DNA of 64,000 nucleotides. It comes from Climacium dendroides (Eukaryota; Streptophyta; Bryopsida; Hypnales; Climaciaceae). Below are positions 10,565 to 55,001 of the stretch, in pieces (the first letter of the stretch is position 1; every line of letters starts with the position of its first letter). Under the pieces are notes generated by a model. The model was not told where the DNA came from. It worked only from the letters and a program-made list of their open reading frames with translations, and searched no databases. The stretch is taken from positions 12,169,538 through 12,233,537 of the forward strand of contig OX467091.1 of the NCBI GenBank assembly GCA_950106755.1, in the 5' to 3' direction. The translations under genes and the position numbers were made by a program.

Positions 10565-10812
10565 CACCTAATTGCATTTTAATGGATGCAACTTCAAGTG
10601 CTTCTATCTCCTTCATCCAATAAAATTTACTGGATTATTTTTCCTTTGAAGTCTTATTGTAGTAAAATTTTCACATCAATCCAAATTGTTTTGAATGTTT
10701 GGGAGTAATTTGAAGTTCAAAATCAAGACATTTTTTTACTACAGTGAACTTTGGTGGCTTGTTTCTTCTTCATACAATGTCTATATCTAGTATAAAAAAT
10801 TAGGAAAGTTGT

Positions 10813-28866: not shown

Positions 28867-30320
28867 TCATTGATTGGCAGCGGCCCGGAGCACCAGCACC
28901 TCCAGCGTCAGTCCCGGTCCGAAGCCGATGAAGAAGCCGAAGTCGCTGCCCTCCCCGAGCGTGGAAGAACCCATCTCCAACGATCTCTGCCGAATCTGGT
29001 CCAACACGAACAACACCGACGAGCTCGACATGTTGCCGTACTCCAGCAGCACGTCGCGGCTGCCCTGCATCTTGTCCTTGGACAGCTGCAGCTTGGCCTC
29101 CACCTGGTCCAGAATAGCGGGGCCTCCGGGGTGCACGGCCCAGAACATCTCGTTCCACGCAGGGGAGCCCACGCACTTGCGCGCCTCCGTGAGAAACTTC
29201 TCGATGTTCTTGGAGATCAGCCCGGGCACGTCCTTCATCAAATGGAAGATGAGCCCTGCTTCCGTGAGATGGCCGTCGATGGCGCCGTCACTTTCGGGCA
29301 AGATGGTCTCCCCCGCCCAGTGGACCTCGAACAAAGCCTTCTCCACTTGCGGCTTGGGGTCCGACCCGACCACGTACACGCCCGCGCCATCCCCGAAGAG
29401 CGCCGAGCCCACCAGCCCGTCCAAGTGATTCTCGCTCGGGGCACGGTACGTCACGGCCGTCACCTCGCTGCACACGGCCAGCACGCGCGCGTTCTTGTTG
29501 TTCTCGGCCAAGTCCTTGGCCACGCGCAACACCGAGGCGCCGCCGAAGCAGCCGGTTTGGTACATCATGACGCGCTTCACGGTGGGCTTCAGGCCCAGCA
29601 GCTTGGCCAGCGCGTGGTCGGCGCCGGGCATGTTCACGCCGCTGGTGGTGGCGAACACGATGTGCGTGATGTCGGACTTGCGGCCACCCCACTCCTTGAT
29701 GGCCTTCAGCGCGGCCTCGGCCGCGAGCTTCGGCACCTGCACCACCACGATGTCGTGGCGCGCGTTCAGCGAGGGCTCCATGTACGTGCATATGCCTGGG
29801 TTGGCCTTCAGCACCTCCTCCGTCAAGAACAGGTGTCGCTTGCGGATGCCCGACTTGTCGCCTGTGGAATGGGATCACACACAAACCACGTCAATTTCAC
29901 TGAAGGCACCACCCCAAGAGCATCTTACTTCGAATTCATCCAGCTCTGAAAATCAATTTGGAGAGACTTGCATCAGAATTCAAATTATTTTCCTCCAATC
30001 CGATCGCCCACATTGAACTAGTCGATGGGATTCATCGGCAAGCAATTAGGTCAGGTGGGTCGGAATGAGTATTCCCACAACGGGGAAGGCAATATTTATT
30101 TAGATGCGGCTCTTGATGGTCACTTACAGATGCGCTTGAACTTGGCCTTGAGCGCCTCCTTCTCGCTGCAGTTGGTGATGTTGAAGAAGAAATCCGGGTA
30201 CTCCGATTGCAGAAACTCCGTGGGAGGCACGGCAGTGCCGATGCCCAACACGCACGCGGGCCCGTCCGCACGAGGCTGTCCCCTGGGGAGCGCAGCGCTC
30301 ACCGCAGTCTGGGAAGCCAT
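28867..30320 (-). CDS. CHS: chalcone synthase, copy A
   Basis: Type III polyketide synthase that condenses one p-coumaroyl-CoA with three malonyl-CoA to naringenin chalcone, the first step of flavonoid synthesis, as a cytosolic homodimer. Exon 1 is 30128-30320 and exon 2 is 28867-29861; the 266-bp intron (GTAAG...CACAG) interrupts the Cys65 codon after its first base, the conserved CHS intron position. The product has 395 residues, the normal length. Catalytic Cys169 (YQTGCFGG), gatekeeper Phe220 (LFGDGAG), His308 (WAVHPGG) and Asn341 (EYGNMSS) correspond to alfalfa Cys164, Phe215, His303 and Asn336; the C-terminal GFGPG loop is present. The start ATG (MASQTAV...) is the usual plant CHS start. 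Coding DNA is strongly GC-rich against AT-rich surroundings. A G-box and TATA box lie upstream. The protein closely resembles moss CHS; a CHS-like enzyme with another starter is possible but nothing in the active site suggests it. Confidence 0.96.
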
Positions 30321-30592
30321 TGCGACGAGTTCGCTAAGTCGACGAACCGAAAGGTGGGAAGTGCGTGCGCTTCGCGTTCCAAGTCTGCCGTCTAAAAGTC
30401 GACTTCTCTGTGATTCAATAGATCCGATCCGAATGAGAGCTTAGTAACTCGCTTGGAATCGAATCCAGGGCCTCTGTCTGTGACTACAGTGTACTAGAGA
30501 ATTCTTGGATTGTGATGTCCAGTAAGTAAGTTGCTGGAGTGCTGGGGATTGATGTTTGCTGTTGTGAGGATTGGATGTGGGGTTTCAGGCTC

Positions 30593-30598
30593 TTTATA
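30593..30598 (-). promoter_or_regulatory. TATA box of CHS-A
   Basis: TATAAA on the minus strand, about 275 bp before the ATG, giving an expected start near 30565 and a leader of roughly 245 nt. The same site stands at 47259-47264 in copy B. Confidence 0.7.
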
Positions 30599-30641
30599 GT
30601 GCGTGTGGAGAGCAACGCGGAGTGCGAGTAGTCTGCGGCGT

Positions 30642-30647
30642 CACGTG
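30642..30647 (-). promoter_or_regulatory. G-box of the CHS-A promoter
   Basis: A perfect CACGTG (in GTCACGTGTTG) lies 43 bp upstream of the TATA box. G-boxes are bound by HY5-type bZIP and bHLH factors and form the light/UV-response unit of many CHS promoters. A possible MYB site (CTAACC on the minus strand, 30746-30751) lies a further 100 bp upstream. Binding is inferred. Confidence 0.65.
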
Positions 30648-31611
30648 TTGCGTAGTAGCGTGGAATTAGTGCTGGGAAGTCTGGGTCACGAGTTCTGTGG
30701 AGAAAAGGGCAGGAAATGGCCCACCAGGGGAGAACGGGTAAACGAGGTTAGTCTGGTCAGCGGGCGGCCAATTCCTTATCACGGGGTAGAGCATTAGAAT
30801 GTCAACTCCGTGGCTTTCCTCGTTGAATGTCGCTTTGTTGTGGTTGACATCCCATGCTTGAAATTTCTCGTCAGTTCTCGGTTTCTCTCTTCAAAGTGTG
30901 ATGAGCTGTCTTTACAACCGGGTTTTAATTTTCTTCTTCTTTGTGATTTGAGTGGCATTTGCACCAAAGTAATGAGCCTTGCACCATGTATTGAAAGGGC
31001 AAAAAATCGCCAAAAAAATCTAAGGAAAAGGAAAATCTTGGATGAAATCTCCAAATTGTGGTTGACAACAAAACTATTGATATTTGATATGTGCTAATTT
31101 GATATTTTCTATCCAATATGTGGGTGAATGTTGAAATTTGGAGCACTACTTTGACACTTTGAAAAAAACTACAACTTATGACATTATTGGCTCCATCCCA
31201 TGGGAATGACACATTTATCCAACCATTTCAAGTCTCCAACTTCCTAAGGTAAAACTGAGCTACCTAATCCTTACACCTTCTATTTTTGTGAAATAGGTGT
31301 GTATTGAAGTGTCACCAATATGACCTCAAACTTTTGGCTTTGAATGGCTCTTAATTTACAAATGGCGCTTCAAGGTTGTAAAGTAACAAGATTTTTAGCG
31401 AATGGTTATGGGTCATTGTCAAGGCTCTTTAACATACACCAATTGAACACTTTCAAGATTCTTCCAATCTTGACTTTGAATATGTGTAGAAAATACAAAA
31501 ATCTTCCAACTTCCAACTTCCTACAAAGAATTCCATTCTCTCTAAGAGGATGGAACACCACATTACTTTTATCTCACTTGAGTAGCTCCTAATGGAGACA
31601 AGAACCTTATC

Positions 31612-31749
31612 CACTAGAAGAAACCCACGTTTAACTTGACAATGTAACATCTTGATGTTATATTGGACGTAATTTTTGACATAAAAACATGAAATTGTAA
31701 CATGATGCGCAAAAAAATCCGTCAAGTTAAACACGAGTTTCTTCTAGTG
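31612..31749. mobile_element. 138-bp CACTA MITE inside duplication copy A
   Basis: Both ends start CACTAGAAGAAAC and pair over 29 bp with three mismatches (31612-31640 against 31721-31749). ATC flanks both sides (31609-31611 and 31750-31752), the 3-bp duplication expected of CACTA elements. The paralogous site near 48315 reads straight through CCTTATTGTTTTATT without the element, an empty site. Confidence 0.9.
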
Positions 31750-32086
31750 ATCGTTTTATCGTCCTTATTTGGTAACTTATTTTATTGTCAAATTTCCTAG
31801 GATGGTGTTGTTGATTCCTAGATTTTGAATAAATGTTGAGGCCCAAGAGTGGTGGATGGATGACTTTCAAGATTTGGTCTACAAATTAGATCAGTTTGGA
31901 CACAATATCGTGGTTAAAGGTCTCATCCTTTCATAGTCAATGGATAAATTGTAACTTCATTGAGTTCACTATTTTCTTCAGTCAAATAAACAATTGATAT
32001 TATTTATACTTACCTTGGTAGCACCCCTTGTTTGTCAATAAGAAGATAGAAAAACATGTAAAAAATTCTTAGAACATAATAACTAA

Positions 32087-32668
32087 ATTTAACCCCTAAA
32101 GTCCCATTGTCCTTGCACGGAACAAAATGGATTTTAGGCAAGCATCTATTATCTCAATTTTTACTGAATTGTTTTCAAATTTTCTCATAATTTAGAAAAA
32201 CTTATGAGATTTCTGAAAATATAATTTTTTTATTTTAATTGGTACTAGATACCAAAGGTTTAGGGACAATAACCTAAAAACATTGGAGACTTGGCAAAAT
32301 AAAATCCACAAAAAATTGAAATAAAAATTTCAATATTTCTTTTCTTGTAGATTATATTTCTTTCTAAATGGAAAACTTTGATTCATTCTATTTGGATTAG
32401 TGATGTGAAAGTTATGGACTTGCTTATTTTGCGGGCAATCATAGCTACTTCTTGAAAGAAATTTTTTTCTTTCACTTTGAATGGTAATATCCTTAAATCT
32501 ATATTGTCAAAAATCACAGAAATTTTATCATGTGGTTCAAGATAAGTGTGGAACAAGATCCATTAGTTACAATCTAAAAAATATTTCTTATAATTATTTT
32601 GTAGGTAAAGGTAGCAGAAGTAGTCATTTTGACCCCAAAAAATGGCCTTGGGACTTTAGGGGTTAAAT
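32087..32668. mobile_element. TTAA-flanked terminal-inverted-repeat element, 582 bp
   Basis: The first 20 bases (ATTTAACCCCTAAAGTCCCA) are the exact reverse complement of the last 20 (32649-32668). If the TTAA is read as target duplication, the element proper begins CCCC at both ends. The interior is AT-rich with no transposase. Diverged relatives are scattered at about 4.5, 13.3-14.0 and 16.4-16.8 kb, and a left end is at 48654-48673 in the other duplication copy. The superfamily is not certain. Confidence 0.75.
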
Positions 32669-35256
32669 GAAGATAAAACTATCATGTGTACACAAGATAC
32701 TAGGTGCATGGCTATGTCGTTTTTTCATCATTTTTAGATTTCTTATCTCAAGATTTTACTTGAATTCACTAATATTTATCTCTTCAACTTATGGTGCACT
32801 TGGAAAAAAAATTCAAAGTTGCTATGCTATATGATTTTCATAACCTTTTTGAAATTTGATGTAAGAATGCAGATGTTGAAAGTGGATTTTAGAAGTAATG
32901 TATACGGTTAAGTTTGAATTTTAAAAATATAGATCTATGAATAATCAACTTAAATGATCTCAACTTGAAAAATTCATTACAAATACAATTTTTATTCTTC
33001 CCCCATGATTTGGGGGTTACTTGGCTAAATCTATAAGATTATTCAAATAACACATATTGCAAAGGAGAAAACTAGACCTTTTGGGTTTAATTTCATATTT
33101 TAAATAAGACATAAAACACATCCATATAAATAATAACTATCAGCTTCATTATAAAAGAGGTAGCTTTGGGCTACAATGTTCCCACCACCTTCTTGGAGGA
33201 TTGGCTTATTGGATGGGATTTGGACTTGAACAAAATCAATGCCACTCATGTGTAGCTTCCTACATTTAGGAGTTAATGCATCTTTCAACTATATTTGATA
33301 TTCTCATATCTTCTTCAATAATCTTGGGAAAATTTTTCATTCAAATTAATTTAAGAATTTCATCTTTGTAGCAATGAACAACAATCACTTTTATGGTAAT
33401 AACTTCCATCATTTATTTAAGATTTTGTGATTAGTTTTTTTCAATAATTGAAGGCATAAAAGGGTGAACGCTTGAAATGCTTGCTCATTTTGTTGCATTT
33501 GACCATTTGGAAAGGTAATACTTGGGTGCTATGAGTTTTTGGAAAAACATATTTAAAAATATAATAAAATATAAATAATGTAAGAAATACTATAAATTAG
33601 TACATAATTCTCAAAATTTCAAGCCTAAGAAAAATAATCTCCAAAAGTTATGTACAAAACAAGTTAATGGAAAATTTCATCCCAAAAGATGCTTTGATGT
33701 TTAAATTGTTAGAAAATATTGAAAAACTTTCCAAAAAGTAGAGCATAAATAGGCCATTTCTATAAACTTTGTGCAAATGAGATTCAACTATTGAAATTAT
33801 GGATACATGTTTGAATGTCTAGAAATGCATTTGCAAGAGAGCCTTCTTTGCACCTATATAGAAGACAAAGAAATTACTTTTTGTATAAATCCCTAAACAA
33901 GTGGATGAAATCCTAGTGGAAGAGCCTTCATTCTAAATTTCTAAGTGAGATTCACTGTTTTGAATACTCCACATTACTAAAAACCATCAATACCACCAAA
34001 TTCTACTTAATAAAACAAGAAAATAATATTTTAATAGAAAATAATTTTTTTATTTAAAAAAATATAGAATGCATTTGAAATTCTATAATACTCTTTCACT
34101 ACTAATTTCAAATACAATGACTCCACATCCCAAAAGTTATGATTGCATTTGAGTTGATTGTGCAGAAAATACATAAAATAGTACTTCTTTTGGTCTAAAA
34201 TAATCTTCTTTTTGACCTTAAATTTTTATTCCAAAATAATCTTCATATTGCACTTTATAATGTTGTGATCGGTCAAATTAGGCTTTCAATTGCTATTTGG
34301 GACCAACAAAACAACTCCAAGTAGTAATTTCCCCTACATCCATGCATTCATTAATAGAAAACAAATGAAGTGATTGAACAAATCAATCAACATTATTTTT
34401 AAAAAAAAAATTTGTTTCTCTTTAAGTGAGCCTAATTGAAGAAGAGGAAGCTCTAGGAGGTGGAACAAAGGTCCCCACATGGTCTTGGCCCTTACTAACT
34501 AACCACATAATAACAACCTCACACTCAAAAAATGTGAGTGAAAAAGTGCCCATTGGTACTCCTTGAAAATGTCTTGAAAACTCCACTTTTCAATACTCCT
34601 AAACTATACTTTGAAAAAGACTTCAAAATTCAAAGTTTCTTGAGTTGTAGGAATGCATCAAACCCAACTCACTATATAAAAAAGGATTTTTAAATGTTAT
34701 TTCTAGTGTTAACCTGGAACATTGGACTTCAAATTCAAAGTTTCTTGGGTTGTAGGAAGGCATCAAACCCAACTCACTACATAAAAACAAGCTTTAAAAA
34801 TGTTATTTCTAGTATTAATTTGGAACATTTTGTCAATAGGAAATCATTTGGAGACAGAGTATGTACAAGAATTTTTAGCTTTCACCCCAGATGGAATTTG
34901 TATGATGTCCATTTTAAAAAAAATATCTTTATATAGTTGTAGAAATTGCAAATGAACTTGAAATAATATAATTGTTTTTGAAAAATAGAGATAATATCAA
35001 CAAACTCCTTGGAATCATCAATATAATATATTTTTTGAGCTCATATGCAAAATTTGTAAAAAAATATATTCAAATGTAGTATATATTATGCTTCCAAGTT
35101 GTTGCCTTCAATGGCTATAAAAATGGCAATTTCTATGATCTTGGAAAAAACAAAAATGAAATAAAAAAATAGATTGAAGGAACTATTTTACTATAGTATG
35201 ACTTGGCCTTTGTCTTTGAAACAACAAAATGTGTTTTAATTGTATTATTAATAGTT
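32669..35256. other. AT-rich intergenic DNA with a 106-bp tandem duplication
   Basis: No gene. Units 34621-34726 and 34727-34830 are two copies of a 106-bp sequence beginning CTTCAAA-TTCAAAGTTTCTTG. A TACTTCTTTTGGTCTAAAATAAT sequence at about 34180 resembles a decayed Stowaway end without a visible partner. Confidence 0.5.
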
Positions 35257-35592
35257 CACGGTAGTCATGGGCAATCTTGTTAAAATGGCGAAATTTCGCT
35301 ACTTTGGCAAATTTTAGAATTTACAACGGGCGGTTTGAAGTGTACAAACATCTTAGATGTTTGAAATCTATACCATTCTTAAATGTGTAAGATCTACATA
35401 AGTGCTAGATATCACTTTTACTATTCAAATTGTGTGGTCTAAAATCTATAGTAGTCATAGATTTCTTAAATCTATAAAAGTCCAAGATTCTTGAAAACTA
35501 TACTTATCCTAGATGTCACTTTTACAATTCAGAGTAGACAGACTAAAAATAGTACATGGAATGCTACCATTTTAACAAAATTCCCTATAGTG
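35257..35592. mobile_element. possible CACTA-like non-autonomous element
   Basis: The left end (CACGGTAGTC..CTTGTTAAAATGG) and the right end in reverse complement (CACTATAGGGA..TTTTGTTAAAATGG) share an inner block and a CAC start, giving a 336-bp unit. Flanking triplets (GTT and ATT) do not match perfectly, so ends or family may be wrong. Confidence 0.4.
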
Positions 35593-37800
35593 ATTAATTT
35601 ATATATTTTTGATGAGTGAACAAATACTAGTTGTTTATTAGTGAAGTTTTCAACACAATTTTTTATTTATTTTCCAAAAATTTTACTATTTGTTTCTTAA
35701 ACTATTTATAAAAAACTGATTTTGACATCAATTAAGTAATCTAAACCAGAGATCATGTCATATTCAAGCATTTAATGTTGGAGCTAGCAACATCAAAATC
35801 ACAAATTAATGCATGTTAAATTTTGTATTTGACCTTGAAAATGACTTTGGGCATCTAGGTACGTAGTGAAGTGTTTAAAATTACCTTCCATCTTTTCATG
35901 ATTCCCTCCAAGGATTAGAAGACAAATTGAGTAGGGTTGAAGAACATTATCTACAACCACCAAATAGATGGGGTACATGAAAGCAATGTCATATCCATTG
36001 CATTTTTGGGTTGTTTCAAGCAGTACTTGTTTTCAAAATACCTATTTTGAACAAGTACTCTATTTTTTTCTTTTTACTTATTAGTAGATTCAAAATTAGA
36101 ATCACTTAGTTAAATTGTTGGAATATATCCTCCATAAAATTTGATGTGCATAATTATAAGATCTATGTAGTTGATTTTCAAAAACAACGAATTTTCTATC
36201 CATCTTGGATGTGAAGTTTCATACTTCAAACTTTTTGATCATTGACAAAAATTGTAGCACAAAACTTGAGAGGAATAAATTTCGTGTTGAAGAAATAAGA
36301 ACATGCAAATATATGAAGAACAATTTGACAATAAATACTTCATATTCATTCTTGAAACTTTGCATGAGGGTAAGGATAAAATAACTTACAAGAAATATTC
36401 CGTACTAAATTGTGAAGGGCATCACCAATCCAACACAATAAACTACCAAAAAATTAGTTTGTGTTATTATTTTTAGATTGGGGTAGAGTTAGGACTTTAA
36501 AGTGTTATCATTGGATATGAAATTTGAAACTACATATAACAAAAAAAAGAAGATATGAATTTGGAATATGGATTTGAAAATTTGTTATGCAATTTGCATG
36601 ATTTTTTTTCTTTAGCCTTACTTGTCATGGCACATTAAATTTTTTGCTTTGAGCTTGCTTCTAATGGATTCTATTTTGATTGCCCAAAGTCCAAATTAGG
36701 ATTCCTTTTCCTTTTCTTTCTTGTATTTGATTTTAATGCTCTTCCAATAATAGTGCTTTGATGAAGCTTTGTGCCAATCAAAAATAGTAATACAATTGTT
36801 GAATGATTCCAATGAACTGCATTGTTTTGATGGCTTTGAAATCATTTTAGAAAATTAATTAGAAACTTTTGATCCCAAAGATTAAAATGGTATTGGTCAA
36901 AAATGTTTGGGATGTAATCTAAACCCTACATGTTGATACATTTTCAAACTGAAATTGTCATATTCTACTCTAAACCTTATCTCTAAACTTCAAACTAACA
37001 TACTCTTGTTTTCTAGTCTAAACCTTATTTCTAAACTTCAAATTGTCATATTCTAGATTTCCAATTTAAACCTTATTTCTAAATTTTGATCACTCATTTA
37101 CCCATGCCATAAAATGCATGAGAGGACATTTGGGATGATTTTAGAGAGACCTCAGGGATAACTTTTTTTTTTTCATTCAAATTGATTTAAAGAGTTGTTT
37201 GAATCCAATTTCAATGAAAGATGTTCAATATCCTCTCCTTGTGATCATTTTTACTTTCCTACACAAGAAAATGGCATTTTCATGGATCTCCATGTAATGG
37301 CAAATTTTCACACTTTGTGCTGTATTCTCTAATTTTGAATTTAAGCCATACAAAATATTTTTTTCTAGATTTGAATTTAAGCTATAAAAATGATGTTTTT
37401 TGAATTTGAGACCAACTTAAGGAAACAAAGCTTATCAATTCTAATTTCTATTGGAATATAGAATATTTTGGAAAATTCCTAAATTTGTGCACTTCATTGT
37501 ATTTGAACTTGAGGGCTAAATGAATGCAAAAAAAAATTGGTATCCTTTCGGAACGGAAGGGTTCAATCGGATACAGATGTGTCTGAAAATGATATCCCAT
37601 CGCCGAGAAGGTTCACAGAACCTGCAGCCCAGCTGCATCCAAATTTCGACACATTCCCTTTGAGGGCCTGAAGTCGGAATGCCTGGGCCCAGCCACTGTC
37701 GACAAGGCCAACCAGCACGCGGCCTTTCGGTGCAAACTTCAACGAGAATCCCCGACCCACACTGAATTGCCCTCGTTTCCATGCACTTTTTCAACAGTCT
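35593..37800. other. AT-rich intergenic DNA
   Basis: No gene. At 36950-37090 a phrase like CTAAACCTTATTTCTAAACTTCAAA recurs three times as a degenerate tandem repeat. Composition becomes GC-richer from about 37540 towards the PAL promoter; the frames there show no domain. Confidence 0.5.
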
Positions 37801-37917
37801 TCCCCAAGTAATTGAAACTGACCCGCGCTGTCAGAAAAAAATCACAACTTTAATAGCACAAGTCCCTCTACAGTTGCACACATGCCCAGTTGCCCAGTCA
37901 AGAGACCCAACAACGAA

Positions 37918-37966
37918 CACGTTTCTTCAATTGACCACGAGATGCCAATCCAGCTCGTCCACCTAC
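37918..37966 (+). promoter_or_regulatory. ACGT core and AC-like MYB site upstream of PAL
   Basis: CACGTT at 37918-37923 is an ACGT-core element, and ACCTAC at 37961-37966 resembles the AC elements recognised by R2R3-MYB factors in phenylpropanoid promoters. They lie about 140 and 97 bp upstream of the putative TATA box, a reasonable spacing. Short motifs, so low confidence. Confidence 0.35.
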
Positions 37967-38062
37967 AAATACTGACCTTCGTGATCCCAGTTCCTCATTT
38001 CAGACCTCTCTCAATTGATAGCAGTGCAGCAACTTCAATTCGAGCCTGCAGTCCATATACAG

Positions 38063-38069
38063 TATATAT
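38063..38069 (+). promoter_or_regulatory. candidate TATA box of PAL
   Basis: TATATAT about 236 bp before the ATG, predicting a start near 38095 and a leader of roughly 210 nt with no intron needed. Confidence 0.5.
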
Positions 38070-38304
38070 GCAAGGTTCCACACTTGCTCAGAATACAAAA
38101 GGTGCAAGTTCCACAATCAGCTGTGCGATCGATAATATACACCAATTCCATTCGTCCAAGTCGAATTCTTAGACTTAACTTCGTTGAAAATTGCAGGGAG
38201 GTTCGATCACAGTGGACGCCTGAAGGAGTACTTGAACTAGGAACTGGCTTGCAATTATTTGAGTGAAGCGCTCAATTCAGGGGGCAAATACAATATTCGA
38301 CTTC

Positions 38305-40470
38305 ATGGCGTCGTCCCAGAGCTACATGAATGCGGGATGCGAGCCCGCCTTGAAGAAACCGACGACATGCCCCAGCTTCTGCAACGAGGCTTCCGAAGCC
38401 GAGGTTTCCCGAGCCGACCCGCTGAACTGGGCCAAGACGGCCGCCAAGTTGCAAGGGAATCATCTGGACGAGATCAAGCAGATGGTGGCCACGTACTTCG
38501 ACTCCACCGAAGTGGCGATTGAGGGCGTCCATCTCACGGTGGGACAGGTCACGGCCATCGCACGCCGGCCCGACGTGGCGGTGGTGCTGGACGCGGCCAA
38601 CGCCAAGGCCAGAGTGGACGAGTCCTCCAACTGGGTGCTCACGAAGATCATGAACGGCGGGGACATCTACGGAGTGACCACGGGATTCGGCGCCACGTCG
38701 CACCGCCGCACGCAGCAAGGCGTGGAGCTGCAGCGCGAGCTCATCCGCTTCCTGAACGCCGGCGTGGTGGTGAAGGGGCACTCGCTGCCCGCGGAGACCA
38801 CGCGCGCGGCCATGCTGGTGCGCACCAACACCTTGATGCAGGGCTACTCCGGGATCCGTTGGGAGATTTTGGAGGCCATGGAGAAGCTGCTGAACGCGCA
38901 CGTCACGCCCAAGCTGCCGTTGCGTGGGACGGTCACCGCCTCCGGGGATTTGGTGCCCTTGTCCTACATTGCGGGGCTGCTCACGGGCCGACCCAACTCG
39001 CGAGCTTGCGCTCCAGATGGCCGGGAGGTTTCGGCGCTGGAGGGGCTGCGGATGGCGGGCGTGGAGAAGCCGTTCGAGCTGCAGCCCAAAGAGGGCCTGG
39101 CGCTCGTGAACGGGACCGCCGTGGGGTCGGCGTTGGCCTCCACGGTGTGCTTCGACGCCAACGTGTTGGCGTTGCTTGCGGAAGTGTTGTCCGCCTTGTT
39201 CTGTGAAGTGATGCAAGGGAAGCCGGAATTCGCCGACCCCTTGACGCACAAGCTGAAGCATCACCCGGGCCAGATGGAAGCTGCAGCGGTGATGGAGTGG
39301 CTCTTGGACGGCAGCGACTTCATGAAAGCCGCGGCCAAGCTCAACGAGACCGATCCCTTGAAGAAGCCGAAGCAGGATCGGTACGCGCTGCGCACTTCCC
39401 CTCAATGGTTGGGTCCCCAAATCGAGGTGATCCGCACCGCCACGCACGCCATCGAGCGCGAGATCAACTCCGTGAACGACAACCCCATCATCGACGCCGC
39501 GCGCGGGATCGCGCTGCACGGGGGCAACTTCCAGGGCACACCCATCGGCGTGTCCATGGACAACATGCGCCTGGCGCTGGCGGCCATCGGCAAGCTCATG
39601 TTTGCGCAGTTCTCGGAGCTGGTGAACGACTACTACAACAACGGCCTGCCGTCCAACTTGAGCGGGGGACCCAACCCCAGCCTGGACTACGGCATGAAGG
39701 GCGCCGAGATCGCCATGGCGTCGTACCTGTCCGAGATCAACTACCTGGCCAACCCCGTCACCACGCACGTCCAGAGCGCGGAGCAGCACAACCAGGACGT
39801 GAACTCGCTCGGCTTGGTGTCCGCGCGCAAGACGGAGGAGGCCGTGGAGATTCTCAAGCTCATGAGCTCCACCTTCCTGGTGGGGCTGTGCCAAGCCATC
39901 GACCTCCGCCATGTGGAGGAGACCATGCAGTCCGCCGTGAAGCAGGTGGTGTTGCAGGCGGCCAAGAAGACGCTGTTCATGGGCCAGGACGGCGCCCTCC
40001 TGCCGTCGCGCTTCTGCGAGAAGGACCTGCTGCTGGTGGTGGAGCGGCAGCCGGTGTTCTCGTACATCGACGACGCGTCGTCCGACACGTACCCGTTGAT
40101 GGAGAAGCTGCGAGGCGTGCTGGTGAGCCACGCCCTCAAGGACGCCTCCCGCTCCGTGTTCGAGCAGATCCCGGTGTTCGAGGCCCAAGTGCAAGAGCGG
40201 CTGCGCGTGGTGGTGCCGTTGGTGCGGGAAGCTTATGACAGCAAGGGCCTTTCGGCGGTGCCCAACCGGATCGAGTCTTGCAGGACGTACCCGCTGTACC
40301 AATTCGTGAGGTCGGAGCTCGGGACGCAATTGCTTTCGGGCTTGCGAAGTGTGTCTCCCGGGACTGAAATTCAGAAAGTGTTCGAGGCGATGTCGGAGGG
40401 GAAGCTGATTCGACCTCTGTTGCAGTGCGTGCAAGGCTGGACTGGCGCTCCTGGCCCATTCCCCTTGTAA
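38305..40470 (+). CDS. PAL: phenylalanine ammonia-lyase
   Basis: Removes ammonia from L-phenylalanine to give trans-cinnamate, the entry to phenylpropanoid metabolism, as a cytosolic homotetramer. The gene is a single 721-codon exon. The Ala212-Ser213-Gly214 triad ([11 protein letters not shown]), which cyclises to the MIO electrophile, is intact. The inner lid Tyr122 is in the [15 protein letters not shown] block. Phe149-Leu150 (RFLNAG) is the pair typical of Phe over Tyr preference. The conserved GTITASGD-like core, NDNP and the [14 protein letters not shown] block are present, as is the plant C-terminal domain, so length is normal. The start at 38305 is the first ATG in frame; the frame is open upstream but only with non-ATG codons. 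Coding DNA is strongly GC-rich. It lies between two CHS genes: divergent from CHS-A (8 kb apart) and convergent with CHS-B. Confidence 0.97.
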
Positions 40471-43400
40471 TTTCCTGTAGCTCATACAGTACCAGGGATG
40501 CTTTCGTTCCGTTAGCCAGTGTACATTCACACATAAGTAGAGATTTAGATATCACTGCTACGTACAGTAGTCGGAGTAGTCATCGGCACACAATTTTCGA
40601 GTCACAGGTTGTGACTCTCGTGTACATTTGATGAGCACTGGGTTCCACATTGGGCCGTGCTTGAGCCATTTTATAACATTCTTTGGACGCCGTGCAATGG
40701 GCGTCGACATTTTCAATTCAGGAGTTTCTTCCAATGCCACCACGGTTGTTTCTAAAATTTGCATGCATTGTCGTCTCTTGATTGAGTTTGTTCTGAGGGG
40801 TTGGTATTTAGGCCAGTTTCGTCGTACTAACATTATGTTCCTGACTGTAACCCGGGAAAAGTTGCATCTTCGAATGGTCCGACAGAAGTGAGAAGTACGC
40901 GAGGGGGAAATTGAAGGAGTTTTCTGATCTGATGGCCTGGAAATGGAAATGACTCGACATCCATCTACTGTGCAGCTCACATGCTCGCATTTTCTTTCCC
41001 AATTCGGAATCTCGACCCATATTGATGATTAGACTTGATATCGATTGGATTTTCGTTACCTAATGCACAATTGAGCAGGCGTGGTTGACGTTTATTTTTA
41101 TGACTTCGTGTTAGTATTTAGCTTCAGTCAAACAAACAAGGAATTATCCAGCACAGTGCGACAATGGGTAATGTTCAAATAGAAATGTTTCAACGCTTGA
41201 ACATGCCGCCGATCAATTGAGTTCGGGGTCAGTTCTCATTCTCATCTTCGATACCGCCTCCGTGTTCGGTGCTTATCATTGCTATCCTCATATAAATTCC
41301 GTTCAATATCATCTATTCTTCCAAGCTAATGTAAAGTGAGCACAAGCTTTGGACTGTATGGGCTTAATTTTTTCTCCTGGATGGCCAGCACTCGTTTCAT
41401 CAACGTAAGCGCCTGCACAAACCTACTGATGACGTGCATGATGGACGTTGTGCAGTTGCATGCTTCCCCTACACAAGAATTATTTAGTGCACATGAGTGC
41501 ATCTAATTTCTACACATGATGGTTTCCAGGAGTGGGTTATACCGAGATGAGGCCTGATACCTGAGAACTTAAGCAGCGAAGGAAGCTACATTCAGCAGAG
41601 TAGAAACAACTGAAGAGCCTGGGACAACTTCAGTACGATTAATTCTCCAATAGATTACATATGATAGATACCTAAGCTTGATTAATAACCTTCATGTCAA
41701 TCCTGACGGTCATCTCTCTCATACCGGACGCACAACGTCAGAGGTTTCATTCTCAAATCAAACGCTCGAAACTGATTGACCAGACGACCCAGACAGTGCA
41801 TTTCCCGGTTTCTTTGCATAATTTGCTGTGCCTCTTCGTTGTCTTGCAAAGCCACGGAAATTGCAAAACGATGGAACTGGTCTTCCAGCACTCGATCACC
41901 AAATTCGTCATGGATGTCCACCTTGCTGCTATAAACTAGATTGCTCGGTTTTTCTTCTGAACCTCTGCAATCAAAATATTTTGCATGGTCGAAACATCAG
42001 TGTGGTGCTAAACGATATGCGCGTGACACTAGTTAGACAAAAACTTCCGAAGTAAGTCATAGATCTATCCATTCATCTGGTACTGTACAAGACCAGTTGG
42101 TTCAGAAAAAGAATTCTGAAAGTCATTCATATCTACTTCTTCTGCCACTGAAGCCCTCTGGCAGGACTGTAAAAAAGCTGAAAGGCAGTGGAAACCCTTG
42201 ACACCTCCTTTTGTCAAAACTCCGTCCATTCTTTTGAATTCGATTTTCTTGAAGGGGCATTACAATCGTTGGAAACCTGCAAGAGGAGAATCTCTTCTTT
42301 GAACAGGCTTCATGCATGAAGCACGTTCGAGTATGAATAGCTACGCCTTGCTCCGCCACAACTCGACGAATTTGTTGGGCAGTAACCTTTCTGCAAGCAC
42401 CAGACTACAGTTATTGAACCCCGAATGTCGTAACGCTTGAGCTCAGTCCAAACACTCTCAACCCTAAATTCAGGCAAGTTTTGAGAGTTTTTTTCGACTT
42501 GATTTTCACTCATCCTGTACACAGCAATATATAGCGGAGACCACTCTTTCTTTCTTTTCTCAAGGCAGAATGCCACCCACTCTTCACAATATGTGATAAA
42601 ATGTGTTTGGATTCCACGACTGCCAAGTGTCCAGGATAGACAGTTGCACGTATCCTTGCACGTGCAACTGCAGCCTACTGTTATATTTGAATTAATCTGG
42701 TCCAGGCTCAGTATAATCTGAAAAGCCTTCAGACCAGGGAATGTGTCGAAAGTTGGTTGCATGTTCTGTGAACCTTCTCGGCAATGGGACGTTATTCTCA
42801 GCCAATTCCTCCAACTGCAGATTCAAAATTGCTGTGTTTTTTTGAATAAAAGGTGAGAAAAATTCATATCAAATATCAAATATGTTTTAAAAATATGAAT
42901 ATTTCTCCGTGGGTGTATATGTCATGGATTGAAACATTGAAACAGTGCAATTTTCTTTCTATAGTGCCATTTAAAAATTAAGAAAATCAACCATTTGTGG
43001 TAATAGGCCCAAAGTTCACAAATACACAAATTAAATATACAAATTTAGGAATTTTTCAACTAACTATGAAACAACTTACAATTTAGATACAATATCCATT
43101 TTTCTCTCTAGAAAATTTTACTAAAAATTATTTCAAGAGATCTAATACTCCCCAAATTGAAATGAATATTTAAATGGTTGTTCTATGCACCTTGTACTTT
43201 AATAGGACAAATTAAGTGGATAGCCTACCCACTTTCCGCTTTGCCATTTAAAGTACCAATAGTGGCTTGACCATTCAAATTGTTAAAGAAAACAAGTGGA
43301 ATTCAAATTTTGGCCTTATTTTATTAGTTTCAAAGAGCCTCACAAGACTGTTGGCATTGGGTAATTGGACTCATTCCCTTGGGCATCTTCACATGTAGTT

Positions 43401-44939
43401 TGTAGGATCAACCTTTTTTAGGTGGCAAAAAATTAGTTGATGGAAAAATCCACCTAAATTTGCAATAAAACCTCATATTGTAATCAAGTAAAATTTCATT
43501 CATTCAATTATCTTTTATTCTATTCAATGTTTTTCATCTACTTCATTGCTTTTCACCTAGGTTCAAATACAAAAACATTATATGAATTATTGGTTCCCAC
43601 TCTAACTATGATCCCAATTCCAAAATCGTAGCAAAGAACCTTGTTTGAAATGTATGTATGTCACTATCTATGAATAATATTGTGAGAGTACAATTGATGT
43701 TGTGCTTCCACCAAAAGGTATTTCCAAGGGATATCTCATAAGATCTCTATCTTCTAATCTTATTGATGGAAATTAACACTTCATATATGGCAATCAATCT
43801 TGGCAATGAAAAATTTCCCCCCAAAAAAATTGAAGAATACGTGAGGCCAATAGTTGCAACCATTAATTTGCTGCTAATACTGGATGTTGAAATGTTTAGT
43901 GTTGACTTAAATGCTAGTGATTTCACCCTTAAAGCACATGCAAGCCCCTTTGACTTGGTTTTGAGAGACTCATTAACAAATAGTGTTTTAGTTGCCTATC
44001 TTTGTTGTGTTTGAGGCATTCTTAGCAAGACTTGAGTGAGTTGTAGTTTCCAACACAAATGAGAATAGACAAGCCATTATTCTTGTCCAACGTTGGGGAA
44101 ACTAGGCCAATCCACAAATTTGTACGCAAACCACTTTCAAGTCCAGTTGGTGAAGCATGACAACATGTATTACTATAGTGTGAGTAGGTTTGTGGATTCC
44201 AACCAACCTACACTCACATACAATCATGTATGAGAATTTTCTCCATTTTAAATTTCATTTTTTCTAATGAAATGCAAAGTCAATACTTCATTGATGCAGC
44301 TGAAATAAAATGTGGTCTAATTTTACGTTCATGCACCTAAAGGACCGCCCAAGAAGCCCACTGACATTGGTTGAGACCATTGATCTTTTGTAAGCAGTTT
44401 TGAGGAGGTTCACATGGTGGAGGCTTTCTTTTGTCCATTTTTTTTTCCCAACTCACGCAACGATCTTCACTGACTCCGGTGATAACTGATAAGAATATTT
44501 GGGCCCAACTGAACTCTGAATATCATCAATCGAATTCAGCTCTTGTGACTGCACCAAAGAATCGACTGTTGGAATTATAATCGACACAACTGTGACGTGC
44601 TGGGAGAAAATTCAAAGGAGCTAGCATTCCAGAAACTCATTGAATGAATTGCCTCTTAATGATGACCTCTTTGTAATGAAATTGCAGAATTTCCTGCACA
44701 ATTCTCACACCGTTTTTCAATATAGATCACTTGTCACTGAGCAACCAAACTGCGTCATGAATACTTAGTTATGGAGACCCAAGCAGGGTGCACACATTCC
44801 ATGCGAAACATCTTATGATTTGATGTGATGTGAAGTTCCTAGATCATTCCCTCGACATGCATTCTATTGCGGGATGTAAAGTAGCGCCGGAGCATGATCT
44901 TACCTACTTCTGACTTGAGATCGAGCGACCAATTTCAGA
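40471..44939. other. PAL 3' flank and intergenic DNA
   Basis: About 40471-41100 is likely 3' untranslated and flanking sequence of PAL. From 41.1 to 42.8 kb composition stays moderate and two minus-strand frames (see next entry) are unassigned. After 42.8 kb the DNA is AT-rich again, with no gene to the second duplication block. Confidence 0.45.
41697..42762 (-). other. possible unassigned coding fragments
   Basis: Two minus-strand frames, 42310-42762 (150 codons, Cys-rich middle, then a stretch rich in Glu, Lys and aromatic residues) and 41697-41921 (74 codons, amphipathic), have protein-like composition in a GC-moderate island. I recognise no domain, and I could not join them with convincing splice sites. 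They may be an orphan gene, a decayed gene, or chance. Confidence 0.18.
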
Positions 44940-45550
44940 CGGTGATCGATACAACCCCCACAGACCGACACTCAAATACCTCCACAATCGTTTCTGGGAT
45001 GCAAGCCATCCAGCAATTCCAATACTTGAAACACGCACATCACTCGTACACAAGCTCTGGAAGCCTGAAATTCATTTCGATGTTCAGTAGAAACGAAAAT
45101 ACGAACTGATCAATATTGACTGCAATCAAGTGTGAATACCGTTGCTTGGGATTCCGCTCTTGTGATCGCCCTCAACAACGACTGGATTATAGTGCCATGA
45201 TTCAACTGCAAAGCAATGACCAGCGTTTAGACAATGCAATTGATGTGAGATTGTGAGGTGGGGGTGCAAGTGGTCACTGGCATTCCGGAAACTCTTTGAA
45301 TGATTTGTTTGTTTCAATTCCTCGTGCTGGCTGCGGATTTCAATTGGAAATCACAATGCCCAGCTGAACAGCAGTTAATCAATGGGGTTGCAACCAATGC
45401 AACACATGAATGGACCTAGATAGCTAACTATGAAGAGTATCAAATGATCCGATTTGAACCTTTCTACACTTATCACGAGTACACTGATATACATGATCCG
45501 CACCAAAAATGAATTCACTCAAAATGCTAGCCCGTCGATCGGGACCTCGC

Positions 45551-47004
45551 TCATTGATTGGCAGCGGCCCGGAGCACCAGCACCTCCAGCGTCAGTCCCG
45601 GTCCGAAGCCGATGAAGAAGCCGAAGTCGCTGCCCTCCCCGAGCGTGGAAGAACCCATCTCCAACGATCTCTGCCGAATCTGGTCCAACACGAACAACAC
45701 CGACGAGCTCGACATGTTGCCGTACTCCAGCAGCACGTCGCGGCTGCCCTGCATCTTGTCCTTGGACAGCTGCAGCTTGGCCTCCACCTGGTCCAGAATA
45801 GCGGGGCCTCCGGGGTGCACGGCCCAGAACATCTCGTTCCACGCAGGGGAGCCCACGCACTTGCGCGCCTCCGTGAGAAACTTCTCGATGTTCTTGGAGA
45901 TCAGCCCGGGCACGTCCTTCATCAAATGGAAGATGAGCCCTGCTTCCGTGAGATGGCCGTCGATGGCGCCGTCACTTTCGGGCAAGATGGTCTCCCCCGC
46001 CCAGTGGACCTCGAACAAAGCCTTCTCCACTTGCGGCTTGGGGTCCGACCCGACCACGTACACGCCCGCGCCATCCCCGAAGAGCGCCGAGCCCACCAGC
46101 CCGTCCAAGTGATTCTCGCTCGGGGCACGGTACGTCACGGCCGTCACCTCGCTGCACACGGCCAGCACGCGCGCGTTCTTGTTGTTCTCGGCCAAGTCCT
46201 TGGCCACGCGCAACACCGAGGCGCCGCCGAAGCAGCCGGTTTGGTACATCATGACGCGCTTCACGGTGGGCTTCAGGCCCAGCAGCTTGGCCAGCGCGTG
46301 GTCGGCGCCGGGCATGTTCACGCCGCTGGTGGTGGCGAACACGATGTGCGTGATGTCGGACTTGCGGCCACCCCACTCCTTGATGGCCTTCAGCGCGGCC
46401 TCGGCCGCGAGCTTCGGCACCTGCACCACCACGATGTCGTGGCGCGCGTTCAGCGAGGGCTCCATGTACGTGCATATGCCTGGGTTGGCCTTCAGCACCT
46501 CCTCCGTCAAGAACAGGTGTCGCTTGCGGATGCCCGACTTGTCGCCTGTGGAATGGGATCACACACAAACCACGTCAATTTCACTGAAGGCACCACCCCA
46601 AGAGCATCTTACTTCGAATTCATCCAGCTCTGAAAATCAATTTGGAGAGACTTGCATCAGAATTCAAATTATTTTCCTCCAATCCGATCGCCCACATTGA
46701 ACTAGTCGATGGGATTCATCGGCAAGCAATTAGGTCAGGTGGGTCGGAATGAGTATTCCCACAACGGGGAAGGCAATATTTATTTAGATGCGGCTCTTGA
46801 TGGTCACTTACAGATGCGCTTGAACTTGGCCTTGAGCGCCTCCTTCTCGCTGCAGTTGGTGATGTTGAAGAAGAAATCCGGGTACTCCGATTGCAGAAAC
46901 TCCGTGGGAGGCACGGCAGTGCCGATGCCCAACACGCACGCGGGCCCGTCCGCACGAGGCTGTCCCCTGGGGAGCGCAGCGCTCACCGCAGTCTGGGAAG
47001 CCAT
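45551..47004 (-). CDS. CHS: chalcone synthase, copy B
   Basis: Second CHS with exon 1 at 46812-47004 and exon 2 at 45551-46545, the 266-bp intron again splitting Cys65. The 395-residue protein is identical to copy A, and because all other reading frames across exons and intron also agree, the DNA is virtually identical from about 45484 to 47030. The intact active site (Cys169, Phe220, His308, Asn341) indicates a working enzyme. It is convergent with PAL, whose stop lies about 5 kb to the left. Its promoter has the same G-box and TATA box, but the leader just downstream of the TATA box lacks 18 bp relative to copy A, so transcript start or output could differ between copies. Confidence 0.96.
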
Positions 47005-49294: not shown

Positions 49295-52006
49295 CACTAC
49301 AAGGAATTGGGGGTTATCATGATTGCAGAAACGTGATTGCAAGGATTTTGCGACTGCATCATGACTTCACCTCTGTAATTGCACCAGCGGGTCGATCTTC
49401 CCGACGCTGCAATCATGATTCAGTCATTCTGCAATCGCACGATTCACTGTGGGATGAACAGTGACTGCGTTAGAGCTGAGGTTCATCCACAATGTTCCGT
49501 CCACAGGGTCCACGAGGAAGTGATGTGGCTATCAGAAACGCGATTGGAGACTACAGGGGACTGCCAAGTCATTGCAGTAGGACTGTAGGACTGAAAGAAG
49601 TCACGGGGAAGATGTTTTCTTTTACTTATACGTAAAGAAAAAGAAGTGAAGCCCCAGAGCGGTCCATGGAGGACAGGAGCGGACAACTACGGTATCGGGT
49701 ATGTGACTTCAATATGACTGTAGAATCACTAAGACTTCTTGCACATATAACTGGGAACATGCAATAATGTGTTTAGGGGAATATGATAGAGGGGGCCATG
49801 CTACAAATGGATGGAACTTTCGATAAGATGTGATGCAGGAAGCCTGAAATGAAACAACATTTAGATATAACGAGAGAGATGTGGGAGTGTCATTATTCAA
49901 ATGAAGCATATACAACATGAAGTGTACAAGGAAGGTATAATACTACTCGGGGTGGAAGCTCATTGAACATGGAGGCGTTTGAGGCGACAACTAGCATGCC
50001 AATGTCTCAAAGATGAGGTGAACACTACTCCAACATCATATTTGCGGTTTTGGCATTCACACTTGGTTGATAAAGTTTGCATTCATGCATTGGACACCAA
50101 GGTTCATAGAAATGTGGCTAATACAGTACTTGCACAAGCGGAAAATTGTATTGAGTATGAATGAAGGACAATGATAAAGGCAAGGTCATCACCCAATAAA
50201 TGGGGTGACATTGAGAGGAAGAGACACCTTGTGGGAAGTGAAGCCTAACTGATTGCAGTATGACTTCACCATGACTGTGATGCAACTACAGAATGACTGA
50301 AGCACGACTAGAGAGTCTAATTAATGACTCTAGTATAACTACTAACTGCCCGAAATGTTTGCAAGTGGTCTACTTGCCTGATTGCTGCATGACGCGTTTA
50401 GCTTTTGTGATGCTCCGCGATCCATGACACAATGAGGGACACTAAAAATGACGTGATTACCTTCCGACTACGGACCTAAGCAGGACTGTACCTAATATTG
50501 CTCTTGCGCCAATAAGTTCTCTTCCATCGATAATTCGATGGCTCCGACTAGATTGGCGGTGGAGCTTCTATCTGGCACTCTTCGTGGAGCTGTAAGTCCC
50601 ATGGCCTCGCCATTAGTTGTGATGAAGGCATCTGTGCGGTCGAGTACCTCTCGTTTCGAACGGGTTTCGTGGCATAAGACCACTTTCCAGCCAGGTTTGT
50701 CCGCCGCATCGGAGAAAAATACCTGTGTGGCTTGACTCGGGAAGATGAATGGCTCGGCCATGCGAGGGAGTTTATGGCGGAAGTTCACCAAAAGGAATCC
50801 TACGTCATCACGCACATACGTAGGGTTCCCTCGTGTGTCAATTGGTTTCACCCACTCACAATGTAGGAGAATAATGCGCGTATGCAATGCGCCATAATCT
50901 ACCTCCAAGATGTCCTTGAGCATGCCAACGTACTACACAGAGGACTGGCTACCACTTCCGCCCTACATTTCGAACATCGATGCCACACCACTATTGTAGC
51001 TTAGAAGTCGGAGTGTTGATTCATCTTCGACACGGAAGTGGTTTCCAAATGCTACGATTCGTGTATATCGAGTTGCTCTTTGTGAAGGTTTTTGGCTCAT
51101 TAAGAAACGATCCACATCCTCAGTATTGCTCCAATCAGGGTCAGAATGCAGCGCCATGGATTGAATCTACTCTGCTAGGGGTGCTGTTGCTGGATTCCGC
51201 TGTGACTCCTCCGTCCACTTCTTGTAGGAGTCCACAATAAGCATCAAATGACATCCGTGAGGCAGTACAAGGAAAACTATAAGACATTCAAAGTGTACGC
51301 AACACAAGGACACTTCACTTTGAATGGGTTCAGTCGAAACACGACTTCATCGCTATTTCATCAAGTCATTTACAAGTCGCATGGAAGTACTAAAATTTTC
51401 AATGACTGCAATACGACTTGTACGCAACTCAGTCACAACTCCGTAAATGAAACAATAGCCACTACATAGCGACTCGACAAGACAGTATCCAGTATTCCAC
51501 AGGAGGCCTATAAACATCCGAAAAATTGATTTCATAAGGTCCACGTCAGGAACTTACGCATACAAATCCTGCATAACGGTGGCATTGGTCAGCACGTACT
51601 GATAAGCAATGTCTTGCAACTCAAGGGTCATAACATATTGCTTTCCAACACTTTGGAGGACCTCCTCTGCGTCACCGTATTCTTCGTCTTTGTCCCACAT
51701 TCGTCGTTGCGTGGCCTCAAATTTATGCAGGTATTCAGTAATGAAGCCTAAGCACTCGTCCTTGAGGTAACCTTCTGCCATGCAAGCCTCTAGACACGCC
51801 AAATTGCGCACGTGATTCTTTAGTACCTTCATGTACCTTTCAACGAGGTACACCCACCTCGCGCTCACTGGTCCGCAGAGGTCTAACTCTCAGGCAAGGT
51901 GATAGGGGAGGTGAGTCATTATGTCAAAAAATGACGGCAGAAATTCTATCTCCAACAAGGCCATGCTCTCCGCTACATCAGTTTGTAGGGACGGGAAGTC
52001 CGCTGG
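49295..52006 (-). mobile_element. CACTA (EnSpm/CMC) transposon, 3' portion, interrupted by Gypsy DNA
   Basis: The terminus CACTACAAGGAATTG at 49295 is a standard plant CACTA end, preceded by TAG as possible 3-bp target duplication. The next 1.2 kb and scattered later stretches carry many copies of a short motif around GACTGCA/ATGACTT in both orientations, the subterminal repeats of this superfamily. The minus strand then encodes the end of the Tnp2 transposase. The element is cut at 52006 by Gypsy LTR sequence; its other end would lie beyond 64000. Confidence 0.82.
50492..52006 (-). pseudogene. CACTA transposase Tnp2, C-terminal part (DUF4218 + DUF4216), broken
   Basis: Reading leftward from 52006, the first part matches DUF4218: a block on a protein positioned as LPSFFDIMTHLPYHL, then RWVYLVERYMKVLKNHVRN and AEGYLKDECLGF (51554-52006). 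After about 400 bp it continues with DUF4216: an RYTRIVAFGNHFRV and NSGV block (50963-51157), then ILEVDYGAL, CEWV, and ATQVFF (50492-50923). Stops interrupt the frame near 51890 and twice between 50924 and 50962 in the same frame. The catalytic transposase domain would be upstream and is cut off by the insertion. Tnp2 proteins bind and cut CACTA ends; this copy cannot. Confidence 0.8.
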
Positions 52007-54968: not shown

Positions 54969-54970
54969 TT

Positions 54971-54982
54971 TGGTATCAGAGC
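54971..54982 (+). other. primer-binding site (initiator tRNA-Met)
   Basis: TGGTATCAGAGC starts two bases after the LTR end and matches the initiator-Met tRNA 3' end used by many plant Gypsy elements. Confidence 0.88.
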
Positions 54983-55001
54983 AGGGCTACGTTGGTGTGC
55001 A

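What the first reader, a model, noticed from the sequence alone, without database searches (positions are those of the whole stretch)
28867..47004. PAL and two CHS genes within 18 kb: a linked flavonoid-entry locus
The first enzyme of phenylpropanoid metabolism and the first committed flavonoid enzyme are neighbours, with no other convincing gene between them. In the well-studied flowering plants I know of, PAL and CHS genes are generally unlinked. Both gene types have strong GC bias and light-type promoter motifs. This could be a small biosynthetic cluster giving co-inheritance or shared chromatin control. I do not know whether the linkage has been described in other mosses.
Basis: partly seen in the sequence, partly recalled or inferred. 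Interest (0 to 1): 0.82.

Follow-up and report, generated by a model that had tools for sequence, protein, structure and literature searches.

The report
Repeated moss PAL–CHS flavonoid gene pairs
In this moss genome the genes for the first step of phenylpropanoid metabolism and the first flavonoid step sit side by side, facing away from each other, and the pair has been copied many times; a similar pairing was already known from a liverwort, so this is a good new example rather than a new kind of thing.

Summary
Two CHS genes (28867-30320, 45551-47004, minus) flank an intronless PAL (38305-40470, plus). By six-frame search of the whole genome (412.6 Mb) I place 37 PAL and 38 CHS; 23 PAL lie within 50 kb of a CHS, at 6 of 13 PAL loci on three chromosomes (about 0.04 loci expected by chance). 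For 22 of these 23, the nearest CHS on the PAL's 5' side is divergent. Chromosome C40 carries 21 PAL and 21 CHS in four near-alternating clusters. Trees, Ks and spacers show the pair duplicated as a unit within C40 and between C1 and C35; between those two groups the case is weaker. Gene bodies are nearly identical between copies while flanks are diverged or swapped, pointing to gene conversion and unequal recombination. The window's cluster holds three 66.8-kb tandem units (one partial), 99.7-99.9% identical. No C4H or 4CL was found in that cluster, and the CHS-promoter G-box is confined to it, so shared control is unproven. Linked, duplicated CHS/PAL pairs are already published for the liverwort Marchantia. 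Verdict: real and striking, but a new member of a known kind.

The parts
28867..30320 (-). CHS copy 1: exon 1 30128-30320, intron 29862-30127, exon 2 28867-29861; 395 aa
   Evidence: GT-AG join at the split Cys codon; PF00195 and PF02797
30593..30647 (-). CHS1 core promoter: TATAAA 30598-30593; G-box CACGTG 30647-30642
   Evidence: A TATA box is found in all 9 linked CHS promoters scanned; the CHS G-box only in the 5 copies scanned of this cluster
30321..38304 (.). 7.98-kb divergent CHS-PAL spacer, 33% GC
   Evidence: blocks homologous, mostly in the same order, to the spacers of the C40 18.3 and 18.8 Mb pairs; spacers of the C1 and C35 pairs are 3.93 and 3.22 kb
38305..40470 (+). PAL, intronless, 721 aa, with the MIO Ala-Ser-Gly sequence (label recalled)
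   Evidence: PF00221, 498 bits; 91-92% identity to its best matches, among them Ceratodon
45551..47004 (-). CHS copy 2: exon 1 46812-47004, intron 46546-46811, exon 2 45551-46545; coding sequence identical to copy 1
   Evidence: 0 of 1188 coding differences; first 1400 bp including the intron identical
52005..61423 (.). Ty3-type LTR retroelement (gag from 54900, pol, chromodomain and SH3 to about 59593) between direct repeats 53829-54675 and 60577-61423, with further LTR-like inverted repeats at 52007-53685
55152..64000 (.). Palindrome: arms 55152-58566 and 61717-65131 (the second runs past the window end), 3415 bp, 1 mismatch; the PAL and CHS genes beyond this point have the opposite orientation

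Best explanation
This is a divergently oriented CHS-PAL gene module that has been duplicated as a unit (clearly within chromosome C40 and between C1 and C35; less surely between those two groups) and amplified on C40 by unequal and inverted recombination into four near-alternating arrays (21 PAL and 21 CHS in all). Gene conversion centred on the GC-rich gene bodies keeps the copies almost identical. Shown: linkage, orientation, joint duplication within each group, tandem 66.8-kb units, mosaic flanks around homogenised genes. Inferred: the effect is to raise, in equal numbers, the gene dose of the entry enzyme (PAL) and the committed flavonoid enzyme (CHS), with the middle steps (C4H, 4CL) supplied from elsewhere in the genome. 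Tight co-regulation through a shared promoter is possible but not supported.
For: Positions and strands: (23 of 37 PAL within 50 kb of a CHS; nearest CHS on the 5' side divergent for 22 of 23; 6 of 13 PAL loci against about 0.04 expected). Joint duplication: PAL tree with a linked clade at 99/98, split into (C1,C35) 100/99 and C40 100/94; CHS tree with (C1,C35) 98/99 and C40 97/91. Ks in the same order for both genes: within C40 0.09-0.27, C1-C35 0.21 (CHS) and 0.33 (PAL), C40 against C1/C35 0.38-0.67. The C1 and C35 spacers match in order at both ends and in five inner blocks, and the C40 12.2, 18.3 and 18.8 spacers share blocks. Recent tandem units of 66.8 kb. Conversion: CHS copies 1 and 2 have 0 mismatches over +1 to +1400 including the intron, against 128 of 1040 aligned sites (12%) from -1800 to -600, and their 3' flanks do not match beyond about +1.8 kb. 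All 8 CHS and all 7 PAL of this cluster are intact.
Against: No expression, chromatin or read data. The CHS tree does not join the C40 and C1/C35 groups with support, and Ks of C40 CHS to the unlinked C1:31.7 CHS (0.51-0.58) or of window PAL to the unlinked C38 PAL (0.59) is about as low as to C1/C35, so descent of all three from one pair rests mainly on the PAL clade. C40 spacers match C1 only next to CHS and in inverted blocks, and C35 only next to CHS in the 18.8 copy. In 15 of 23 linked PAL the closest CHS by match position is on the 3' side, so which CHS is a PAL's partner inside the arrays is open. PAL-only (C38, 7 copies) and CHS-only arrays (C1:31.7 and C2:31.3, 5 copies each) also exist, so amplification does not need the pairing. 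One PAL (C40:16574928) has no CHS on its 5' side within 90 kb.
Confidence: 0.75

Rival explanations
1. Passive linkage: PAL and CHS became neighbours by chance and have since been copied together by recombination in an unstable region, with no advantage from being adjacent.
For: PAL-only and CHS-only tandem arrays in the same genome; spacers read vary from 3.2 to 36 kb, the longest holding retroelement genes; promoter words shared at chance level in the window pair.
Against: Near-strict alternation, equal numbers (23:23) and one divergent order on three chromosomes, over Ks of 0.38-0.67; all copies of the window's cluster intact.
Confidence: 0.45
2. Functional co-regulated module: adjacency gives shared chromatin or enhancer control for a UV or light response.
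For: Conserved divergent order; proximal promoters of linked pairs align within each gene, with a TATA box in 9 of 9 CHS promoters. In Pohlia nutans, PAL (14 genes) and CHS genes rise under UV-B (PMC9247546, passages), but linkage is not mentioned in those passages.
Against: The CHS G-box is confined to one cluster; a TATA-type word is found in 1 of 7 linked PAL promoters; no MYB-type element is conserved; gaps of 3.2-8 kb or more are too long for one bidirectional core promoter; words shared between CHS and PAL promoters are at chance in the window and 18.8 pairs and only marginal in C1 and C35.
Confidence: 0.3
3. Assembly artefact: the repeats come from fold-back or repeated placement of one locus.
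For: Near-perfect 3.4-kb palindrome (1 mismatch) and 66.8-kb units up to 99.9% identical.
Against: No N in 264 kb; aligned units differ at 45-77 positions plus gaps; linkage recurs on two other chromosomes with diverged copies (Ks 0.2-0.7). It could inflate the copy number, not create the linkage.
Confidence: 0.08
4. RNA-silencing locus: inverted PAL/CHS copies make double-stranded RNA that lowers PAL or CHS expression, as inverted CHS repeats do at the soybean I locus.
For: Inverted orientation within three of the four C40 clusters, including tail-to-tail PAL copies at C40:18.324/18.340; soybean precedent PMC3804491 and PMC6710647 (search listing and abstract starts only).
Against: Copies are intact with promoters of their own; the inverted neighbours lie about 15-100 kb apart; no small-RNA data.
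Confidence: 0.07

Closest known systems
CHS/PAL gene pair of Marchantia polymorpha (Bowman et al. 2017, as reported in PMC7010833)
   Same: Neighbouring PAL and CHS genes; the pair itself duplicated many times in a bryophyte
   Different: Another division (liverwort). The moss linked PALs nest inside moss PALs, so shared descent of the linkage is not shown. Orientation and homogenisation in Marchantia were not seen by me; the original paper was not held
Plant biosynthetic gene clusters (as described in PMC8133574)
   Same: Non-homologous enzymes of one pathway physically linked
   Different: Only two enzyme types found in the window's cluster; co-expression unknown. PMC8133574 (passages) concluded that type III PKSs are unlikely to form gene clusters in the many species studied, naming one barley case as the only published one
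Soybean I-locus CHS repeat cluster
   Same: Inverted CHS repeats changed by non-allelic recombination (titles and abstract starts)
   Different: PAL is not mentioned in what I saw; there the repeats silence CHS; no silencing evidence here
Ordinary tandem arrays of PAL or CHS alone
   Same: Several local copies; also present in this genome (C38; C1:31.7; C2:31.3)
   Different: Here two unrelated genes alternate as one unit

Membership tests
Phenylalanine ammonia-lyase | Full-length aromatic lyase domain, placed among plant PALs | tested here: met
   PF00221 at 498 bits; within moss PALs in the tree
Chalcone synthase | Type III PKS N and C domains, close to characterised CHS | tested here: met
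   PF00195 and PF02797; best solved matches are named chalcone synthase (9jl6, 9kah, 6dx7). Enzyme product not testable here
Bryophyte CHS/PAL gene pair (Marchantia type) | PAL and CHS adjacent and duplicated together | tested here: met
Bryophyte CHS/PAL gene pair (Marchantia type) | Linkage inherited from a common ancestor with Marchantia | tested here: inconclusive
   The linked moss PAL clade nests among unlinked moss PALs; no other moss or liverwort genome could be searched for context
Plant biosynthetic gene cluster | Three or more different enzyme families of one pathway | tested here: not met
   Window's cluster (264 kb): of 54 groups of other frames of 110 aa or more, 51 were scanned with Pfam and gave only transposable-element domains, DUFs typical of them (recalled), an LTP and a sub-cut-off Nop53 match. 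Other clusters were not scanned; 0 of 21 PF00501 and 0 of 96 PF00067 matches lie in them, but only 14 of 82 and 92 of 436 candidates were scored
Plant biosynthetic gene cluster | Co-expression of members | not testable with these tools
   No expression data
Bidirectional promoter pair | Short shared promoter between divergent starts (usually under 1 kb; recalled) | tested here: not met
   Start-codon gaps of 3.2-8.0 kb, and 36 kb in one, for the eight pairs read
CHS silencing locus (soybean I type) | siRNAs from inverted repeats | not testable with these tools
   No small-RNA data

The most novel reading that the evidence does not exclude
Divergent CHS-PAL linkage is an ancestral feature of mosses and liverworts, kept by selection since early land plants and used as a dose-balanced entry module of flavonoid metabolism, with gene conversion and repeated amplification as its working mode.
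Probability: 0.18. Interest if true: 0.8.

Novelty: new member of a known kind. Interest (0 to 1): 0.52.

Why it matters
PAL and CHS are usually thought of as scattered genes (recalled), and a study of 126 species judged type III PKS gene clusters unlikely (PMC8133574, passages). A moss with 23 PAL and 23 CHS in paired loci, beside the known Marchantia pairs, makes it testable whether bryophytes keep the two ends of the flavonoid entry together by descent or reached it twice. It also offers a natural system in which copy number and sequence homogeneity of both enzymes change together in a haploid-dominant plant.

Tried and rejected
Light-motif argument: G-box and MYB-type patterns were scanned in 1.27-1.5 kb upstream of 9 linked CHS and 7 linked PAL copies. 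The only promoter pattern that I take as conserved in all copies of a gene is the CHS TATA box; the stricter MYB-type pattern occurs in the C1 pair (both genes) and once far upstream in the 18.8 CHS, not in the others. Shared words between CHS and PAL promoters: chance level in the window and 18.8 pairs, marginal in C1 and C35; one heptamer occurs in all four pairs, but my shuffles ignored that the PAL promoters are homologous to each other, so I give it no weight.

GC richness as a result of biased gene conversion in arrays: array copies tend to have higher GC3 (0.84-0.94) than single or low-copy genes (0.66-0.86), but the ranges overlap and the copies are related; left as a lead.

Linkage in other bryophytes through locus tags: a Ceratodon CHS (KC19_6G202900) and a PAL (M758_6G204400) bear chromosome-6 tags and their clusters list the same 18,980,603-base contig, but the tags come from two annotations, are about 15 tag steps apart and fall in other subclades than the linked genes; a weak lead only. 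In Riccia, PAL R1flu_015507 and CHS R1flu_015513 are six tags apart, also a lead only. The third protein search added no further moss tags.

Literature: eight searches on this question (in some only 15 of 670, 209 and 34 papers were listed) and one on soybean. From listings, and passages of three papers, I found no report of a moss PAL-CHS linkage; papers of subscription journals are mostly not held. The Marchantia genome paper was not held.

Full report
What is in the window. CHS copy 1 (28867-30320, minus) and copy 2 (45551-47004, minus) each have two exons and encode 395 aa; PAL (38305-40470, plus) is a single open frame of 721 aa. Pfam confirms both enzymes, and the closest solved structures for the CHS are chalcone synthases. 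The best PAL matches are 91-92% identical and include Ceratodon, so the host is a moss. The frames tested between the genes have no Pfam match. The rest of the window holds a lipid-transfer-type protein at 23.6 kb, a Ty3-type retroelement at about 53.8-61.4 kb and DNA-transposon remnants.

The whole genome. The window is C40:12169538-12233537 of a 412.6-Mb assembly. From the PF00221 and PF00195 searches (50 and 75 matches) I kept one position per gene, 37 PAL and 38 CHS; these are six-frame counts, not annotated genes. Merged into loci they form 13 PAL and 12 CHS loci, of which six coincide: C40 at 12.2, 16.4-16.6, 18.3 and 18.8 Mb, C1 at 17.5 Mb and C35 at 13.3 Mb. Random placement would give about 0.04 coincidences within 50 kb, with loci treated as points; extended clusters would raise this somewhat. 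Of 37 PAL, 21 have a CHS within 20 kb and 23 within 50 kb. For 22 of those 23 the nearest CHS on the PAL's 5' side is divergent; the exception, C40:16574928, has its nearest 5'-side CHS 90 kb away and in the same orientation. In 15 of the 23 a CHS on the 3' side is closer still, because the arrays alternate. C40 alone holds 21 PAL and 21 CHS in nearly strict alternation; the 18.3 cluster has two PAL next to each other. Start-codon gaps are 3.93 kb (C1), 3.22 kb (C35), 4.56 kb (18.3), 6.96 kb (18.8) and 7.98 kb (window); three further pairs of the window's cluster have 6.5, 8.0 and 36 kb. The 16.4-16.6 cluster was not read; only its gene positions are known.

The pair moves as a unit. In protein trees the linked PALs form one clade (99/98) split into C1+C35 and C40; the CHS tree also groups C1 with C35 (98/99) and the C40 copies together (97/91), but does not join these two groups with support. 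Ks gives the same order for both genes: within C40 lowest, C1-C35 next, C40 against C1/C35 highest; yet C40 genes are about as close to one unlinked CHS (0.51-0.58) and one unlinked PAL (0.59 for the window copy) as to C1/C35 (0.38-0.67). The C1 and C35 spacers match in order at both ends and in five inner blocks, and the spacers of the three C40 clusters compared share many blocks; C40 against C1 match only next to CHS and in inverted blocks, and C40 against C35 only next to CHS in the 18.8 copy. All five Ceratodon PALs in the set fall outside the linked clade, and the nearest relative of that clade is an unlinked PAL of the same genome (C35:16.1, 93/90). So joint duplication is firm within C40 and between C1 and C35; that all stem from one pair is likely from the PAL tree but not settled, and presence in other mosses is not shown.

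How the copies are kept alike. The window's cluster spans three tandem units of 66.8 kb (the third matched over 39.9 kb), 99.7-99.9% identical, with no N in 264 kb. Older copies show a different pattern. CHS copies 1 and 2 are identical over the first 1400 bp from the start codon, intron included. From -1800 to -600 they differ at 128 of 1040 aligned sites (12%), and beyond about +1.8 kb their 3' flanks no longer match. Copy 1 shares its 3' flank with one unit copy and its closest 5' flank with another. PAL copies show the same mosaic: 0-6 of 2166 coding differences, with 3' flanks that match in one comparison and not in another. Purifying selection on the protein would not keep an intron and silent sites identical; gene conversion and unequal crossing-over centred on gene bodies explain it. 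Not all introns are homogenised: copy 1 and one unit copy differ at up to nine sites in that region. All eight CHS and seven PAL of the cluster are intact.

Function. The most likely effect is higher and balanced dose of the pathway's entry enzyme and its flavonoid-committing enzyme; this is inference. I found no sign of the two middle steps in the cluster: of 149 other frames of at least 110 aa in 54 groups, 51 groups were scanned with Pfam and gave transposable-element domains, DUF4216 and DUF4218, a lipid-transfer protein and one Nop53 match below its cut-off, no P450 and no AMP-binding enzyme. Genome-wide, none of 21 AMP-binding or 96 P450 matches lies in a PAL-CHS cluster, although only 14 of 82 and 92 of 436 candidates were scored. 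Small exons could be missed. The regulatory argument is weak: one G-box in this cluster's CHS promoters only (plus one in the 18.8 PAL promoter), no conserved MYB-type element, spacers too long for one bidirectional promoter, and no excess of shared promoter words in the window pair. PAL-only and CHS-only arrays elsewhere in the genome show that both families amplify without a partner, so passive hitchhiking remains a serious rival.

Against the literature. [quoted passage not shown] 2017, which was not held). A study of 126 species concluded that type III PKSs are unlikely to form gene clusters in the many species studied (PMC8133574, passages). The Pohlia nutans genome paper reports expanded PAL and CHS families and their rise under UV-B; the passages I saw do not mention linkage (PMC9247546). 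My eight searches on this question found no description of PAL-CHS linkage in a moss, judged from listings (partial in three of them) and a few passages, in a library that lacks most subscription journals. The finding is therefore a new member of a known kind, notable for scale, orientation and clear concerted evolution.

Noticed in passing
G000 C38:23707102-23810481: Seven PAL copies in a tandem array without CHS, with the highest GC3 seen (0.936 in the one copy read)
   Followed up: partly
G000 C1:31693933-31739987 and C2:31300145-31333267: Two CHS-only arrays of five copies each, in mixed orientation
   Followed up: partly
G000 C37:3.638 Mb, C35:11.570 Mb, C2:19.915 and 19.930 Mb, C34:21.378 Mb: PAL-family genes that match in several pieces, so probably intron-bearing, unlike the intronless PALs of the pairs
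   Followed up: no
window 10089-10658: Direct repeat of 38-bp period, 11 copies in register
   Followed up: no
window 6504-8198: 564-aa open frame rich in Ser/Pro with a run of Gly-Ser-Lys-Ala repeats; no Pfam match
   Followed up: no
window 23638-24102: Lipid-transfer-type protein (PF14368)
   Followed up: no
window 50495-51889: DUF4216 and DUF4218 fragments, typical of CACTA-type DNA transposons (association recalled)
   Followed up: no
L028 7416-7790: DDE_3 transposase fragment at the far edge of the cluster
   Followed up: no
G000 C1:17493796-17493912: PAL fragment below the family cut-off about 25 kb from the C1 PAL-CHS pair; possibly a remnant copy
   Followed up: no
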